Positions 3,005 to 62,061 of a stretch of DNA of 64,000 nt are shown piece by piece (the first letter of the stretch is position 1; the number at the start of each line of letters is the position of its first letter). A program made the position numbers and the translations under genes. This DNA comes from Cepaea nemoralis. Its lineage: Eukaryota > Mollusca > Gastropoda > Stylommatophora > Helicidae. The notes beneath the pieces are model-generated. The model searched no databases. It was not told the origin of the DNA and saw only the letters and a program-made list of their open reading frames with translations. Location: positions 1,290,001 to 1,354,000 of the forward strand of contig JACEFZ010017415.1 of assembly GCA_014155875.1 (NCBI GenBank), given 5' to 3'.

Positions 3005-3740
3005 TTATTAATCATTATCATCAAGTGCCATGCAAACTGGCATAAACGTTCTTGACTCCCCACAGATCTCGGTCTTTGGTTTTCTGGATCAACTCTGCTG
3101 ATGATATTCCTCCATGCCACCGTCTCAATCCATCCAGCATAATTTCTCTTGGTCTGTCTCTGCCTCTGTTCCCCTCGATCTTTCCTATTGTCAAGATGTT
3201 CTCCAATGACTCTCTTCTCATCACATGACCAAGAAAGCTGTTTGTCCTTTTCTTATTGTTGTATGTTCCTTAGCCTCTTTCAGGCAATCAATGTTATTTA
3301 CATTGGCAGTCCAAGGAACTCACAACATACATCTCTGTTGCTTCCAAGTTCTTCCTAATTTGTTCATTTACATTTCAAGATTCACTTCCATACAATAAAA
3401 TAGGTTCTATATAGCACTTCCTTTCTTACATTCAATGATAGCGACGCATTGCATAAGATACTCTTCATTTTCTGAAATGCAGCTTTTGCTTGCCCTATTC
3501 TGCTCTTAACCTCTGTTGTGCATCTTCCACCTGATGTTATAAATGCCCCTAGGTATTTAAAATTATCCACTTGGTTAAGAATTTTCCCTTCTATTTCTAT
3601 TTCACTTTTTGGTGTCAAGATTATTAATGCCACAGATGATTTAAAGTTTAATATTTTTAATGTATTATATTTGATTGCACGATTTATTGCCTGGAATATT
3701 TCGCTGCATCTCGTCAGGTACATACTGAAGATCACACAAC
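3005..3740 (-). pseudogene. RTE-type LINE fragment (RT C-terminus)
   Basis: This is a minus-strand LINE piece. The block 3735-3382 reads FKYLGAFITSGGRCTTEVKSRI and KMKSILCN. The block 3224-3021 reads MMRRESLENILTIGKIEGNRGR and ends AELIQKTKDRD. These are the conserved C-terminal motifs of RTE/craTA-like RTs. They match the 56.9-60.1 kb RTE (YLGTVITTDGRCLEEIRTRI, GKIEGN) and, more closely, the fragment at 28.93-29.40 kb. The 3' end is an ATC-rich tail at about 3005-3025. Several frame breaks are present. Confidence 0.82.
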
Positions 3741-3756
3741 TTACGTGAATTACCTA

Positions 3757-5336
3757 GATAAATCCTTCATGTTGAAATATACACATATTCGCACAGTAAT
3801 GTCAATTATCTACCACGGTAATTTTAAGCTGACTAACATGTCTTCCTGTTTGCACAATTCTGGTTTGCGTTGATTGATCATAATTGCTTCTGCAAATTTT
3901 AACAAGCGAGTATTTTGTGTGTTAAACAACATGCGAAAGGCAGTGTCTCTGTCAACCACATGGCCGCTCTCGACAATGTGCCTACCAATTGAAGACGCCG
4001 GGAGCTTCCGGTGTGTCGGCCCCATGAGGCTAGCATCTCCTGTGTGTTGTATCTTGTTGACCCATTGAGGTATGTGTTCTGACACTCGTTTGTTAAGCTG
4101 TCTCTCTGTTCTACCAATGTAGAAGGCCTGGCATCTACATGTGAATTGGTAAATACAATTGTTTGTGGCGTACAGAGGAACAGGCTCTTTGACTGCTGGT
4201 GTAGGAATCGGTACGGTTTTATATCTAATGACTGGAGTTGCAGCACAGAATGTTTGGCCTACTGCTGTAGTAAGCCGGTCTTGTAGACGTTGCATTACGT
4301 CATCCCCTCGAAAGGTTAGCTGGATGAATACCTTGAGTTTAGGGACTGTAGTTAAGTCTGGTTTTGGTTTGGGCTGTTGGCAGTGGCGCTTTATAAATCC
4401 TGTGGAGTACCCATTCAGGTTTAAGACATTCTTCAGAGTTTCAAATTCCTCTGTCAGTGTGTCCTGGGTGCATATCTTTCTAGCACGGTCAAACAGGGTC
4501 CGTACTAAGCCCTGTTTGTACTGGACAGGTGTGAAGCTCTGAAAATTTAGGCATTGGCCAGTCCATGTTCCTTTGCAATACACCGATCTTTGAATTGTGC
4601 CGTCTGCTCTACGTCTCATTAGAATATCTAGGAACGGTAACGCTTCGTTGTGTTCGTGTTCCATAGATAGAGAGATGTTTTTATGCGTCTTGTTCATTGT
4701 GGCCTGGAACGATGTTGCTTGTAGCTTGTCTGTGGTGATAATTAGTATATTGTCCATATAACGATGGTAAAAGGCCAAGTTGTTGATGTCTGAGGATCTC
4801 TTTTCTTCTAAATGTGCCATGAAGATGTCCACTAGAATAGGACCAAGAGGACTCCCCATGGCCACTCCGTCAATTTGGCGGTATGACTTAGTTAGAAAAT
4901 TGAATTGTATGTTGGCGGTACATAGTAGTAGTAGCCTCTCCAGAATAGGTGTTGGTATGCCTAATTTTAGTTGTTTGTCTTCAATGCGTTCCCTTATTAT
5001 TTTCACTGTCTCATCTAATGGAACGTTAGTGAATAGGGAGGCTATATCCATGGATGCCATGTGTTTGTTATTTATGTCCATAGTATCCAATAATTCCACC
5101 AGTTGGAATGTATCTCTGAGTATTTTTGGATCGAAGGACTGTCGTACTGGCTTTAAAATTTCAGCTAGCCATCTCGCCATTCGGTGTTGTGCAGAGTTAA
5201 CCATGGACAGGATAGGTCTTAGCGGGATGCCGGGCTTGTGAAGTTTGGGTAGACCGTACATCTGAGGAGTGTGCGAGCCACGTGGTGTGAGCGTTTTTGC
5301 AGTGGCCTCACTGATGAGTCCTGCATTCACAAGTGA
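3757..5336 (-). mobile_element. Penelope-like element (PLE), 5'-truncated
   Basis: This is a minus-strand Penelope-like retroelement, identified by an RT followed by a GIY-YIG endonuclease. The 3' non-coding end (about 3757-3809) includes a segment, ATCTACCAYGGTAATTTT, that recurs at 56.9 kb, which helps place the element's 3' boundary. The 5' end is truncated and runs into a 37-bp direct repeat and then an inverted copy of its own 5' segment. Confidence 0.85.
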
Positions 5337-5354
5337 CTGGATCTCTTTCCTCAT
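3810..5354 (-). CDS. PLE reverse transcriptase / GIY-YIG endonuclease, N-terminally truncated
   Basis: The 514-codon open frame lacks the N-terminal part of a full PLE protein. It carries RT motifs in order: YGLPKLHKPGIPLRPI (about aa 33-48), MDIASLFTNVPLDE (RT motif A, about aa 100), DGVAMGSPLGPILVDIF (motif B, about aa 163) and YHRYMDNILI (motif C, about aa 195). Motif C has Asn in place of the second Asp of the usual Y-x-DD, which should cripple polymerisation unless it is a family trait. The C-terminus has the endonuclease-like IYQFTCRCQAFYIGRTERQLNKR... region with YIG (about aa 410-430), a downstream SIGRHI and the conserved FAEAIMI. The apparent start methionine lies in the junction repeat and is not a native start. 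Confidence 0.88.
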   Translation of the reverse strand: MRKEIQSLVNAGLISEATAKTLTPRGSHTPQMYGLPKLHKPGIPLRPILSMVNSAQHRMARWLAEILKPVRQSFDPKILRDTFQLVELLDTMDINNKHMASMDIASLFTNVPLDETVKIIRERIEDKQLKLGIPTPILERLLLLCTANIQFNFLTKSYRQIDGVAMGSPLGPILVDIFMAHLEEKRSSDINNLAFYHRYMDNILIITTDKLQATSFQATMNKTHKNISLSMEHEHNEALPFLDILMRRRADGTIQRSVYCKGTWTGQCLNFQSFTPVQYKQGLVRTLFDRARKICTQDTLTEEFETLKNVLNLNGYSTGFIKRHCQQPKPKPDLTTVPKLKVFIQLTFRGDDVMQRLQDRLTTAVGQTFCAATPVIRYKTVPIPTPAVKEPVPLYATNNCIYQFTCRCQAFYIGRTERQLNKRVSEHIPQWVNKIQHTGDASLMGPTHRKLPASSIGRHIVESGHVVDRDTAFRMLFNTQNTRLLKFAEAIMINQRKPELCKQEDMLVSLKLPW

Positions 5355-5410
5355 TATTGCATCCAGTCACTTGCTGGATCTCTTTCCTCATTATTGCATC
5401 CAGTCACTTG
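5337..5410. repeat. 37-bp direct repeat at PLE inversion junction
   Basis: The unit beginning CTGGATCTCTTTCCTC and ending CCAGTCACTTG occurs twice head to tail, at 5337-5373 and 5374-5410. It lies exactly between the minus-strand PLE and the plus-strand inverted copy. Confidence 0.9.
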
Positions 5411-5563
5411 TGAGAGCGGGACTCATCAGTGAGGCCACTGCAAAAACGCTCACACCACGTGGCTCGCACACTCCTCAGATGTATGGTCTACCCAAACTTC
5501 ACAAGCCCGGCATCCCGCTAAAACCTATCCTGTCTATGGTTAACTCTGCACAACACCGAATGG
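5411..5563 (+). repeat. Inverted copy of the PLE 5' segment
   Basis: This plus-strand stretch encodes the same peptide as the start of the minus-strand PLE (AGLISEATAKTLTPRGSH... YGLPKLHKPGIPL). It is almost identical in DNA to the complement of 5181-5336. The match stops abruptly at ACCGAATGG (about 5563). The two copies form a head-to-head inverted repeat of about 150 bp with a short spacer. Confidence 0.88.
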
Positions 5564-6056
5564 TGAGACAATATCTCTGTCAGACAATAGAGCTCTTTTG
5601 CGGTGTTTCAAATGCTTCCACTATCAATTAAACAAAGACATTATTGTAAGGATTTAAACTGATTTTTCTTGGCAAAATTTTGTAGTAGTTCAGTTCAGAT
5701 TATTATCATTACACGCCAGATAATCCATAGATGCTCCAATCTCCTACAAAGTAAATTCATCAGCGTACGGCAACAACCTGACCCTTCCAGTGTTGATTGA
5801 TGAGTTTCCTTGCAAACTTGATGTGCTGTTACTTTCTTGCCAGATTGATCTTTAATCCAGCACCTACATTCTGACTAATGATGCTGATTAATTCAGCTGA
5901 AAGTCTTTATTTTGGCTGGCCTCTCTAAGAGCATTCATGATGTTTGATCAAAGCACTGGTTGACCCTCTGATATAGTGGCAGTGCTGGTCAGCCTTTTAT
6001 CTTTTTCTCTGCCTAATGGGTATGTCATAAACTATTTAGACCAAGGGAGATGACAC
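5564..6056. other. No recognisable gene
   Basis: This is AT-rich intronic sequence. I see no long ORF, TE motif or RNA gene. Confidence 0.5.
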
Positions 6057-25215: not shown

Positions 25216-25350
<135 letters not shown>

Positions 25351-25407: not shown

Positions 25408-25542
25408 CACTTCCCCAGCATCTCAAAGGTCCAAGTGTCATCTGTGCAGTGCCTTCATTGTTCTGAATAAATGAAAGTTCCATGAGAGGCAACTGGTTTA
25501 GCTGATGGTTAAAACCTTGATCAACTCTGGGTTCCACTGAAT
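25408..25542 (-). CDS. CNTNAP-like: CNTNAP-like exon between fibrinogen-like and LamG3 modules
   Basis: The acceptor is TTTTACTCTGCAG and the donor is GAAGTG|GTACAT. The exon starts with two bases and ends with one. The frame reads SVEPRVDQGFNHQLNQLPLM, then LSFIQNNEGTAQMT and LGPLRCWGS. It aligns with the stretch LLSYKEHLPV, then KLGPLLCQGD that follows the fibrinogen-like domain in vertebrate CNTNAPs. Length is 135 bp. The 3' splice site is only 19 nt downstream of a hammerhead-bearing SINE. Confidence 0.87.
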
Positions 25543-25561
25543 CTGCAGAGTAAAATAGATT

Positions 25562-25828
25562 TAAAGATTGAGCACAACCCCCTACTGGCAACGCTGATCA
25601 TATTCCGGCACAAACGTTAAGCCTTGTTCACGTCAGATTGGAAGCACCAAACTCAAGTTTCGCTCTTGTTTGAGCTCATCAGTAGTGCATATCCTTGACT
25701 GGACCTGGGATTGAACTTCAGATCACTGGCGTGTGAGACATGTGTGCAACCACTGACCACACAACTAACGCTGGACACGGCCAATTATCATACTAGAATA
25801 TCACGTCACCCATTGTAGGCTGTAGCTC
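25562..25828 (-). mobile_element. tRNA-headed SINE with hammerhead ribozyme (family A, copy 1)
   Basis: Read on the minus strand, the element starts GAGCTACAGCCTACAATGGG. It then has a tRNA-like head with box A (TGTGGTCAGTGGTTGC) and box B (AGTTCAATCCC, close to GGTTCGANTCC), the hammerhead motif, and a 3' part ending GGGTTGTGCTCAATCTTTA. It aligns along its whole length with 61797-62052. It lies in sense orientation at the very 3' end of the intron before exon 25408-25542 and may supply the branch-point region. No clear target duplication was seen for this copy. Confidence 0.85.
25640..25694 (-). ncRNA. Hammerhead ribozyme, type I, intact core
   Basis: The minus strand shows the complete conserved core in order. 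Stem I 5' strand is GCACUA (25688-25683), then CUGAUGA (25682-25676). Stem II is GCUC/GAGC with loop AAACAA (25675-25662), then GAAA (25661-25658). A short self-complementary stem III, ACUUGAGU, follows (25658-25651). Position 17 is U (25650), and the stem I 3' strand is UGGUGC (25649-25644) with one U-G wobble. Outer stem I adds GGA/UCC across a UAU bulge. Predicted cleavage is between 25650 and 25649. A two-nucleotide stem III loop is typical of minimal type I hammerheads, which often cleave best as dimers, so activity in cis may be weak. Confidence 0.82.
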
Positions 25829-26003
25829 AAAATTTGCCCAATCGCCGCGACTGACATCCGTTAATCGAAGTGGCCCCGAATGATCAGGTGATTAATAGAT
25901 TTGATAAATAATAAATAAAATAGATTTATATGTTAAAACTACAGAATAAAATTGAGATAAAATAACTGTAACAGTTACTATGAACCACAAGTCAATCATG
26001 TAA

Positions 26004-54184: not shown

Positions 54185-55412
54185 GGTACTTTTGCTTTCT
54201 TTCACCCCAAACAAAAGGGAATCCCAGGGTATGACGTCACATCCAGGGGTTCCCTGTGTTGCGCTGAACATCCAGGGGTTTCCGTGTGTTGCGCCGTAGC
54301 TCGGTGCGCAATTATATGCGGCGGTAGTGCGCTATTCTTGCGGTGGCCAGAATCCAATAATGTCCGCAAGAATGGTGTTGAACACATCTAGACCAGCACA
54401 TTTAGTCTGTCGGTGCCACATGAATTCGCACATGTAGGACTCTAGTAGATGCCTGCGTGTTCCATTCTGCCTCTTGTTTCTCTCCTTGGCCGTTCTCCAC
54501 ATGCGCTCGATACATTGAGTATGTGCACCGGTGGTAGGGTCCACAAAGTTGTAGGAGGGGTTGACTGTGAGATGCGTCAATTCGGGAATACTTCCAATTC
54601 CGTTGTACGCACGCCAGAGGTCGGAAACTACAGTTGTGATAGGCCGAATGTGTGTCCTGATCAGCAGCAGCAGAAGCGTTGACGCTGTTCTGTCTGGAAC
54701 ACAGAACCATGAAGCAGTCTGCTGTTTCACGACAGATGCCACCAAATACCCCCACTGTTGTGGCAACACTCGTCCGACATGATGTTTGCGCCTTGTAAAT
54801 AGGCTCTCATCTATCTCGACAGTGGTATTTGGTCCTCCGATTACTACCGGATTGACTAACAGTTTGTGGGCACAAACCTCTCGTAGGTAATTACTCCAGT
54901 CAACAGTTGCTCTCGGCGACATCCCCAACTGTAACTGGCAAAATGAAATGCTTGTCAACTCTTGAGACCAGCAGTATATGAAAAGAATGATCTGTCTGTA
55001 CGGGAGACACGAGCCTTGCAGCCAAGTGCCTTGTCTCAGCGGGATGTCCTGCCGACATGATGAATGTCGGCATCTCCATCTGTCCTGACGCTCAGTCAGC
55101 GATAGCACCATGACATGATTATGAGAACAGCGTCTTGCAGAATGTAAGATACCATGATGCTGCAGAAAAGCCACGCTAATCTGCTTGTCGTGGACAGCTG
55201 CTGCCAGTTCCAGAAAACTCATGATGAGACAGACACTCACATAGAAACGGTTGCCACAGCCAAAGAAACAACACTGTGGTGTGGGGCAATTGAAACGCAT
55301 TGACACACACTCCAGCCGAACACAGAGGAGATCACCGTCGGCGCTAAATATAGCTGGTGACTCTAAATATAGCTCGCAAAGTTTGTTTGGGGTGAAAGAA
55401 AGCAAAAGTACC
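54185..55412 (-). mobile_element. Merlin-type (ISXO2/IS1595-like) DNA transposon
   Basis: This is a 1,228-bp element with long TIRs. The left end reads GGTACTTTTGCTTTCTTTCA and continues CCCCAAACAAA; the right end is its exact reverse complement over about 31 bp (55382-55412). It has a perfect 8-bp target duplication, GAAGAAAG (54177-54184 and 55413-55420), as expected for Merlin. The ORF is uninterrupted and the ends match, so it is a young and possibly autonomous copy. Confidence 0.93.
54332..55300 (-). CDS. Merlin/ISXO2-like DDE transposase
   Basis: The open frame runs to the stop at 54332. The longest reading starts at 55459, outside the transposon, so the real start is inside: Met at 55300 (322 aa) or 55222 (296 aa, MSFLELAAAVHDKQISVAF), the latter giving a length closer to known Merlin proteins. 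A Cys/His zinc-ribbon-like region (CRHSSC, about aa 74-79 from the 55300 start) precedes the catalytic domain. That domain shows NTTVEIDESLFTRRKHHVGR (first Asp), PITTVVSDLWRAYNGI (second Asp) and SYNFVDPTTGAHTQCIERMW with K-x-RNKR (third catalytic residue region). These are the ISXO2-like signatures. No stop or frameshift was seen. Confidence 0.92.
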   Translation of the reverse strand: MRFNCPTPQCCFFGCGNRFYVSVCLIMSFLELAAAVHDKQISVAFLQHHGILHSARRCSHNHVMVLSLTERQDRWRCRHSSCRQDIPLRQGTWLQGSCLPYRQIILFIYCWSQELTSISFCQLQLGMSPRATVDWSNYLREVCAHKLLVNPVVIGGPNTTVEIDESLFTRRKHHVGRVLPQQWGYLVASVVKQQTASWFCVPDRTASTLLLLLIRTHIRPITTVVSDLWRAYNGIGSIPELTHLTVNPSYNFVDPTTGAHTQCIERMWRTAKERNKRQNGTRRHLLESYMCEFMWHRQTKCAGLDVFNTILADIIGFWPPQE

Positions 55413-55577
55413 GAAGAAAGTAAAAGGAAAAACAGGAAGACATGAGGAGAAATGCACAAATAAACACAGAAATATGCCAGACATTGATCAACATATTATT
55501 ACACACATTACAGAGTAGAACAAATTATCTGAATTTGTAAGTAGCATAACCTGAAAAAGAAGGATAAAATAACGTAC

Positions 55578-61155: not shown

Positions 61156-61796
61156 AATCTGTGTCTTCTTTTTGTTATTTGTTAAACCAAATTAAGATCA
61201 AGCATTGGAGAATGTAGATAGTAGATGTAATTCTTCCTCTGAGTGGGTCATAATTGCAGCATCATCTGCAAAAAGCAACTCTCTGATCAGTACCCTCCTA
61301 ATTTTGGTCTTGGCCTTCAATCTCTGAGCATTATAGAGGCCGCCATCTGAGCGTGAGTGATTGTATACACTGGCATGCTGATCACGAAAGGCATATTTCA
61401 GTAGAAGTGAAAAGTATATTCCAAAGAGGGTTGGGGCTAGTATACAACCTTGCTTAACTCCACTCTTGATTTCAAACTCTTCTGAAGTTGCACCATCAAA
61501 ATTGATTGTACCCTTCATGCCTGTGTGGAACGATTCCACAATGGACAGAAGAGTTGGTGGGCAGCCAATCTTCTTTAGTGCCTTGAACAGACCCTCACGA
61601 CTGACCAAATCAAATGCCTTTGTGAGGTCGATGAAGGCAGTGGTTGATTTTGTTCCCGGCATTTTTCTTGCATTTGTCGAAATGAGAATATCATATCAAT
61701 GGTAGACTGGTTCTGTCGGAAGCCACACTGTGGTTCGGGGTAGACTTGATCTCCCAGGACTTGAAGTCTGCGAAGAACAATTCTGGCAAATACTTT

Positions 61797-62052
61797 GAGC
61801 ATAGCCTACGATGGGTAGCGTTGTGGTATTCCGGTGTGATAATTTGGCGTGTCCAGTGTGTGCTGCGTGGTTACACACCCGCTTCACACGCGTGATCCGG
61901 GGCTTGTTTCCGGATCCGGTCAGGGATATGCACTACTGACAAGCTCAAACGAGGGCGAAACTCGAGTATAGTGCTTCCATGACGTGGATAGGCCTTAGGT
62001 TCGTGCCGGAATGCGATCGGCGTTGCCGGTAGTGGGTTGTGCTCAATATTTA
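61797..62052 (+). mobile_element. tRNA-headed SINE with hammerhead motif (family A, copy 2)
   Basis: This 256-bp plus-strand insertion lies in the RT of a minus-strand LINE, with a 9-bp target duplication AAATACTTT (61788-61796 and 62053-62061). It starts GAGCATAGCCTACGATGGG, has a tRNA-like head (GCGTGGTTACACACCCGC as box A region; GGCTTGTTTCC as decayed box B), the hammerhead motif, and the 3' part GTGCCGGAATGCGATCGGCG ... GGGTTGTGCTCAATATTTA. It is collinear with 25828-25562 along its whole length. Confidence 0.9.
61923..61978 (+). ncRNA. Hammerhead ribozyme motif, type I, one core substitution
   Basis: Stem I 5' strand GCACUA (61930-61935) with outer GGGA (61923-61926); CUGACAA (61936-61942), where the consensus CUGANGA has G8 changed to A; stem II GCUC/GGGC (one U-G wobble) with loop AAACGA (61943-61956); GAAA (61957-61960); stem III ACUCGAGU (61960-61967); position 17 A (61968); stem I 3' strand UAGUGC (61969-61974), a perfect complement, then UUCC pairing GGGA. 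The G8 change should strongly reduce cleavage, as G8 is the general-acid nucleotide. Confidence 0.82.
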
Positions 62053-62061
62053 AAATACTTT
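62053..62061. repeat. SINE target-site duplication (right copy)
   Basis: AAATACTTT, identical to 61788-61796. Confidence 0.9.

What the first reader, a model, noticed from the sequence alone, without database searches (positions are those of the whole stretch)
25640..25694. Hammerhead ribozyme with an intact core in a SINE, sense in a CNTNAP-like intron
The minus strand shows GCACUA, CUGAUGA, GCUC-AAACAA-GAGC, GAAA, ACUUGAGU, U, UGGUGC in perfect order for a type I hammerhead. Both core boxes match the consensus exactly and all three helices pair. It is part of a tRNA-headed SINE, so this is a mobile, RNA-polymerase-III-type repeat carrying its own ribozyme. Hammerheads in SINE-like repeats are known from schistosomes, and others occur in Penelope-like elements and retrozymes; I cannot tell whether this particular family has been described.
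Basis: partly seen in the sequence, partly recalled or inferred. Interest (0 to 1): 0.92.

Follow-up and report, generated by a model that had tools for sequence, protein, structure and literature searches.

The report
Ribozyme repeat with Penelope-type insertion scars
A roughly 400-base mobile repeat carries a hammerhead motif (a predicted self-cutting RNA) whose conserved core recurs at more than 15,000 places in this unnamed, probably animal, genome, and its insertions show the two alternative ends and mirror-image layout described for Penelope-like retrotransposons, which likely supply the enzyme that copies it and so may answer how such repeats spread.

Summary
The hammerhead at 25640-25694 (minus strand) is real: core and all three helices are present, cut predicted after U25650; cmscan 34.7 bits, E 3.5e-7 on 401 bases, below Rfam's gathering score. 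The core pattern occurs 15,218 times in the window's own genome against 31 for the reversed pattern. The repeat is a ~402-bp unit found alone, in tandem (41 units in one array) and head-to-head, with target duplications of mostly 9-14 bp. Inserts end mainly at one of two sites about 28 nt apart; of 32 head-to-head inserts, 21 have both outer ends at these sites and 20 of those 21 use one of each. This is the "tail" signature described as unique to Penelope-like elements (PLEs). A PLE family in the same genome has its own ends mainly at two sites 27-28 nt apart. The "SINE" part is half right: only the oldest subfamily's consensus has an A/B-box pair; younger ones lost it and kept the ribozyme. 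So: a retrozyme-type element with a decayed tRNA-like head, likely mobilised by PLE enzymes. Animal retrozymes are known; evidence for which enzyme moves one is the new part. Cleavage, circles and PLE mobilisation are inferred; nothing was tested at the bench.

The parts
25640..25694 (-). type I hammerhead ribozyme motif; cut predicted between 25650 and 25649
   Evidence: core pattern genome-wide
25563..25893 (-). repeat copy 1 (331 bp, single, 5'-truncated, ends at the inner 3' site), oldest subfamily
25894..25902 (-). upstream copy of the 9-bp target duplication AAATCTATT
25554..25562 (-). downstream copy of the 9-bp target duplication AAATCTATT
25745..25760 (-). A-box-like stretch of the tRNA-like head, with a 1-bp deletion
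   Evidence: box patterns recalled
25707..25718 (-). B-box-like stretch of the tRNA-like head
   Evidence: box patterns recalled
61785..62054 (+). repeat copy 2, young-type A-box deletion, core broken (CTGACAA)
3813..5366 (-). Penelope-like element, reverse transcriptase frame (518 aa), candidate relative of the enzyme source
3673..3812 (-). 3' repeat of that element, with hammerhead-like core CTGACGA at 3717-3711 just before an ATG; insertion ends at about 3673
5398..5592 (+). inverted piece of the same element, head-to-head with it

Best explanation
It is a non-coding, ~402-bp mobile repeat whose RNA is predicted to be cut to unit length by its own hammerhead and likely closed into circles, and which is likely copied into new sites by Penelope-like reverse transcriptase and endonuclease starting at two points about 28 nt apart in its tail. 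Shown by sequence: the ribozyme motif and the unit; tandem and head-to-head inserts; AT-rich target duplications of mostly 9-14 bp; inner (consensus position ~380) and outer (~405-408) 3' ends, one of each in 20 of the 21 head-to-head inserts that have both outer ends at these sites; a Penelope-like family in the same genome whose own 3' ends fall mainly at two sites 27-28 nt apart. Inferred: that the hammerhead cleaves in the cell, that the template is a circle or multimer, and that this Penelope family or a relative is the enzyme source. The tRNA-like head was probably a Pol III promoter in the oldest subfamily; it decayed in the younger ones while the ribozyme stayed.
For: 15,218 intact-core places against 31 control. 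Tandem units join at 405/408, ~11 nt, then 1; 41 units at 402 bp in one array. Of 82 insertions not cut by a stretch end, 32 head-to-head, 1 tail-to-tail, 49 one-way. One-of-each ends in 20 of 21 scorable head-to-head inserts, P 4e-7 from the one-way frequencies and 1e-5 at the most lenient 50%. Flank repeats of 9 bp or more in 31 of 81 insertions, 0.8 expected, 76% AT. Two internal start sites, both strands extended, AT-rich targets and a tail called unique to PLEs are described for a purified PLE (PMC11167929); tail on one of the inverted repeats, 8-10 bp duplications, mostly head-to-head (PMC3846280 passages). Own-genome PLE: 83 places scored of 38,516 candidates, ten listed with an 841-aa open frame without stop; of 23 distinct PLE 3' ends, 7 at +63-71 and 11 at +90-99 from the ATG. 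Copies reach upstream of the head (5' ends from position 1 on), as a circle or multimer template would allow.
Against: No significant overall homology between the repeat's tail and the PLE (256 of 1,000 shuffles score as high); anchored at the start sites it is 18 of 36, p 0.007, 0.027 with slack. 11 of 32 head-to-head inserts have an outer end elsewhere, and 5 of 23 PLE ends lie at other sites. No RNA data, so no evidence of cleavage or circles; only 1 of 49 one-way 5' ends lies within 3 nt of the cut, and core-chosen stretches are blind to starts beyond the core. Units of the C198 array share variants in blocks, so part of the tandem growth is probably DNA duplication. GC is 50-51%, above the low GC given for known animal retrozymes.
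Confidence: 0.68

Rival explanations
1. A tRNA-derived SINE: Pol III makes a monomer from the head, a LINE enzyme copies it from its 3' tail, and the hammerhead is a passenger.
For: A/B-box pair and a TTTT in the leader in the oldest consensus; target duplications; 5'-truncated single copies such as the window's.
Against: Younger subfamilies lack the box pair; inserts reach upstream of the head and run through unit junctions; two fixed internal ends and one-of-each head-to-head inserts; no poly-A or simple-repeat tail in the flanks printed.
Confidence: 0.12
2. A tandem satellite that spreads by DNA recombination; the hammerhead is incidental.
For: The C198 array of 41 units has variants shared by evenly spaced units such as 28, 31, 34, as block duplication would give.
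Against: Dispersed copies with target duplications and recurrent 3' ends; between old and young consensus the ribozyme changed at 2 of 54 positions, both compatible with the fold, the head at 21 of 81 (14 of the 54 were fixed by how copies were chosen).
Confidence: 0.06
3. A reduced Penelope element: the repeat is a deletion derivative of a hammerhead-bearing PLE and not an unrelated parasite of it.
For: Same end signature, hammerheads in both; a 2024 review proposes that retrozymes arose by reduction of PLEs (PMC11722881 passages).
Against: No significant sequence match to the one PLE family compared; canonical hammerhead with a strong stem II where the PLE has a minimal one; a tRNA-like head that is not seen in that PLE's 3' repeat.
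Confidence: 0.12

Closest known systems
Metazoan non-LTR retrozymes (Cervera and de la Pena 2020, PMC7229834)
   Same: Type I hammerhead in a tandem repeat of a few hundred bp, no coding sequence, thousands of copies, target duplications longer than 4 bp
   Different: tRNA-like head in the oldest subfamily; head-to-head inserts with paired ends, of which the text parts I read say nothing; GC 50-51%; circles not shown
Schistosome Sm-alpha / Sj-alpha SINE-like repeats (named in PMC8490949 and PMC4918200, passages)
   Same: SINE-like repeat with a type I hammerhead; a tRNA sequence in the schistosome repeat
   Different: Here no tRNA is recognised, the boxes decay in younger copies, and the insertion scars are described; sequence relation not tested
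Penelope-like elements (PMC11167929, PMC3846280)
   Same: Two adjacent start sites (a ~28-nt tail), one end with and one without tail in inverted pairs, tandems, mostly head-to-head inserts, AT-rich duplications, a hammerhead upstream of the start sites
   Different: No reverse transcriptase or endonuclease in the unit; canonical, not minimal, hammerhead; no significant sequence homology to the local PLE

Membership tests
Metazoan non-LTR retrozyme | Type I hammerhead with intact core | tested here: met
Metazoan non-LTR retrozyme | Repeat of 150-450 bp, from single copies and dimers to multimers, without coding sequence | tested here: met
   402-bp unit, arrays
Metazoan non-LTR retrozyme | Target duplications, where present, longer than 4 bp | tested here: met
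   31 of 81 with 9 bp or more
Metazoan non-LTR retrozyme | Low GC (<50%, or <45% in the figure legend) | tested here: not met
   50.0-51.4%; descriptive trait, borderline
Metazoan non-LTR retrozyme | Expressed as linear and circular RNA cut by the hammerhead | not testable with these tools
   no RNA data held
tRNA-derived SINE | Pol III A and B boxes in a tRNA-like head | tested here: inconclusive
   pair in the oldest consensus only; no tRNA called
tRNA-derived SINE | Monomers that begin at the Pol III start and end in a LINE-type tail | tested here: not met
   5' ends spread from position 1 to 355, two internal 3' ends
Penelope-type mobilisation | 3' ends at two adjacent sites (tail), head-to-head inserts, both strands primed | tested here: met
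   own-genome PLE for comparison
Penelope-type mobilisation | Recognition of the repeat's RNA by a PLE protein | not testable with these tools
   needs purified protein
Penelope-like element | Frame for reverse transcriptase with GIY-YIG endonuclease | tested here: not met
   the 402-bp unit is too short and adjoins itself in arrays
Sm-alpha / Sj-alpha | Sequence homology to the schistosome repeats | not tested
   no schistosome repeat sequence was at hand

The most novel reading that the evidence does not exclude
A Penelope-dependent ribozyme SINE: a tRNA-headed repeat gave up its Pol III promoter, lives as a hammerhead-made RNA circle, and is inserted by a Penelope enzyme pair that reads one RNA from two start sites, one for each cut strand of the target, which writes the one-of-each head-to-head scar.
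Probability: 0.35. Interest if true: 0.87.

Novelty: new variant of a known kind. Interest (0 to 1): 0.74.

Why it matters
Hammerheads have been known in animal repeats since 1987 (PMC7229834), and retrozymes are thought to spread by a borrowed reverse transcriptase, but a 2020 review says the repeats show no conserved motif from which the enzyme could be deduced (PMC7761336, passages) and a 2024 review still names LINEs or Penelope-like elements as options (PMC11722881, passages). Here the scars themselves point to Penelope-like enzymes, and the one-of-each rule is a test that can be run on any retrozyme genome (mussel, coral, axolotl). The three subfamilies also look like a path from a Pol III-type repeat to a ribozyme repeat without that promoter. 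I found no report of this in eight searches of the held open-access library (listings, with passages of a few), which misses most subscription papers.

Tried and rejected
Considered and rejected: chance motif (15,218 against 31 in control); pure satellite (dispersed copies with duplications); monomeric Pol III template (copies extend upstream of the head); cleaved linear RNA as main run-off template (1 of 49 one-way 5' ends near the cut; weak test, since most stretches were chosen for holding the core). CTGATGAG at window 5429 lies in PLE coding sequence and is not a hammerhead. Homology of the repeat's tail to the local PLE: not significant by local alignment, suggestive only when anchored at the start sites. 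Species: three protein searches gave no close named relative: the PLE's best named hits are flukes at roughly 40-53% identity among the 120 listed, the second query had none, and the named hits in the 120 listed rows of the third are two hemipteran insects and a nematode; organism unknown. A count by A-box pattern did not complete.

Biases and dropped rows: the 60 stretches L009-L068 were chosen for the CTGATGAG form (988 of the 15,218 cores); the 20 stretches L069-L088 for the tail word, isolated places among the first 100 listed of 12,206. L021 and L022 are near-identical and both counted; L022 was dropped. Of 89 insertions, 7 cut by stretch ends were left out. Of 32 head-to-head inserts, 11 with an outer end elsewhere were left out of the pairing test; 16 of the 21 scored come from core-chosen stretches (15 one-of-each) and 5 from tail-chosen ones (5), the latter bound to have an outer end. 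In one search, 18 of 155 aligned pieces were left unclassified and 45 of 103 young pieces used (L009, L010, L012, L014 left out). In one search, 25 PLE sequences were examined; L098, L103 and L109 share one flank and count once, and L107's end is uncertain because of internal repeats. BLAST ends are good to about 3 nt; in the young subfamily a 1-nt indel makes the outer end read 405 instead of 408. One search labelled all 13 copies broken through an index error of mine; one search is the corrected count.

Full report
Observation. Rfam's RF02275 model covers it end to end with 34.7 bits, E 3.5e-7 on the 401 bases searched, below the curated gathering score of 52; the whole window gives no match at gathering thresholds. 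The open helix is stem I, so it is type I. Stem III is three pairs with a two-base loop; in the family consensus it is the palindrome ACUCGAGU, which could also pair between two ribozymes (inference).

How many. CTGANGAG-N12-CGAAAC occurs 15,218 times (7,727 + 7,491) and 31 times when read backwards; the narrower CTGATGAG form occurs 988 times against 3. A 16-base tail word occurs 12,206 times, control 0. These are exact-match counts and miss decayed copies.

Anatomy. I fetched 60 stretches around CTGATGAG cores and 20 around isolated tail words and compared them with a 408-nt working consensus. The unit is leader (1-164), tRNA-like head (165-245), hammerhead (246-299, cut after 290) and tail (300-408), then about 11 nt to the next unit. 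One array holds 41 units at 402 bp. Of 89 insertions, 7 were cut by stretch ends; of the other 82, 49 point one way, 32 are head-to-head and 1 is tail-to-tail. Old, diverged copies show tandems and head-to-head pairs too (L020, L035, L038).

Ends. 3' ends pile up at 379-380 and at 405-408, with a scatter of others. Of 32 head-to-head inserts, 21 have both outer ends in these two classes; 20 have one of each and 1 has two outer-site ends; the other 11 have an end elsewhere. With the one-way frequencies (30 outer, 13 inner of 49) the chance of 20 or more in 21 is 4e-7; with the most lenient 50% it is 1e-5; for the core-chosen stretches alone, 15 of 16, it is 2e-5 and 3e-4. Flanking repeats of 9 bp or more occur in 31 of 81 insertions, 0.8 expected from mismatched flanks, 76% AT. 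The window copy has the 9-bp AAATCTATT.

What that means. Frangieh et al. 2024 (PMC11167929; parts 1 and 2 of 4 read and passages) purified a Penelope-like protein and found that it cuts and extends both strands and starts reverse transcription at two adjacent internal sites; [quoted passage not shown] They saw no difference in start site between the two strands in vitro, and hammerhead mutants did not affect insertion in vitro, so the one-of-each pairing and the need for cleavage are not explained by that work. Arkhipova et al. 2013 (PMC3846280, passages) describe a 31-bp tail at one of the inverted pLTRs, 8-10 bp duplications and mostly head-to-head inserts. The repeat shows these features. 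The step from scar to enzyme is inference.

A candidate partner. The window carries a PLE (3813-5366) whose 3' repeat has a minimal hammerhead-like core just before an ATG and an inverted piece at its 5' side. The genome search scored 83 of 38,516 candidates; the places other than the window's own are 94-97% identical, and ten listed ones have an 841-aa open frame without stop. The 3' ends of 25 PLE sequences (23 distinct) fall at +63-71 (7), +90-99 (11), +37-40 (3, the window's among them) and elsewhere (2) from the ATG: the two main sites are 27-28 nt apart, as in the repeat. But primary sequence is not significantly shared (256 of 1,000 shuffles); aligned at the start sites without gaps it is 18 of 36, p 0.007, or 0.027 with slack. 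So a Penelope-like enzyme is well supported; the exact partner is not.

The head. Consensuses of 19 old, 15 middle and 45 young pieces show the A-box/B-box pair and a leader TTTT only in the old one; the young one has lost eight bases of the A box. Between old and young the head changed at 21 of 81 positions (two deletions account for ten), the leader at 19 of 164, the tail at 9 of 109, the hammerhead at 2 of 54 (stem II A-to-G, which still pairs as G-U; H17 C-to-A, still allowed by the recalled NUH rule). Fourteen of those 54 were fixed by how copies were chosen, so the contrast is suggestive only. In 13 copies not chosen for the core, 12 keep it whole; the excess over the surroundings is not significant (p 0.13). 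No tRNA is recognised by ARAGORN or by Rfam in L018 and L026. The canonical box patterns are recalled.

Known or new. PMC7229834 (parts 1-4 of 6 read, and passages) defines animal retrozymes and names PLEs a strong candidate to move them, from shared tandems, hammerheads and coexistence. PMC7761336 (passages) says no motif reveals the enzyme. PMC4918200 (passages) notes a full tRNA in schistosome repeats and 15-bp duplications in an anemone; PMC8490949 (passages) names the SINE-like schistosome repeats. The giant squid genome paper (PMC6962438, passages) reports 235 hammerhead 1 matches and thousands of valine-tRNA-derived loci, with no such element in the passages seen. I therefore file this as a retrozyme-type element, new variant: decayed tRNA-like head and Penelope-type scars. 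One listed trait, GC under 50%, is narrowly not met (50-51%).

Host gene. The target duplication ends 11 nt before a putative exon start at 25542 (CTCTGCAG|ATTCAG), so it forms part of the acceptor tract; the ribozyme would be in sense there if that exon is real. The gene's identity is unproven.

Noticed in passing
window 3673-5592 and the places: A Penelope-like family with a minimal hammerhead-like core before its ATG, many 94-97% identical copies and at least ten listed 841-aa frames without a stop: probably a recently active autonomous family.
   Followed up: partly
window 61785-62054: Second copy of the repeat, young type, with G8 of the core changed to A (CTGACAA): predicted inactive.
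   Followed up: yes
window 25542-25562: The repeat's target duplication lies 11 nt before a putative 3' splice site, so the insertion may have replaced the intron's branch point region.
   Followed up: no
window 54335-55495 (-): Frame with an IS1595-type DDE transposase; best relatives (up to 73%) are unnamed metagenome proteins.
   Followed up: partly
window 25219-25314: Perfect (AT)48 run next to the putative exon.
   Followed up: no
L014 (G000:C2070:719500-724000): Array with a repeated larger period: a partial unit starting at consensus 170 recurs after three full units.
   Followed up: no
first 100 places listed: Most listed cores read CTGACGAG, so the CTGATGAG of the window may be CpG decay at the free position N7.
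   Followed up: partly
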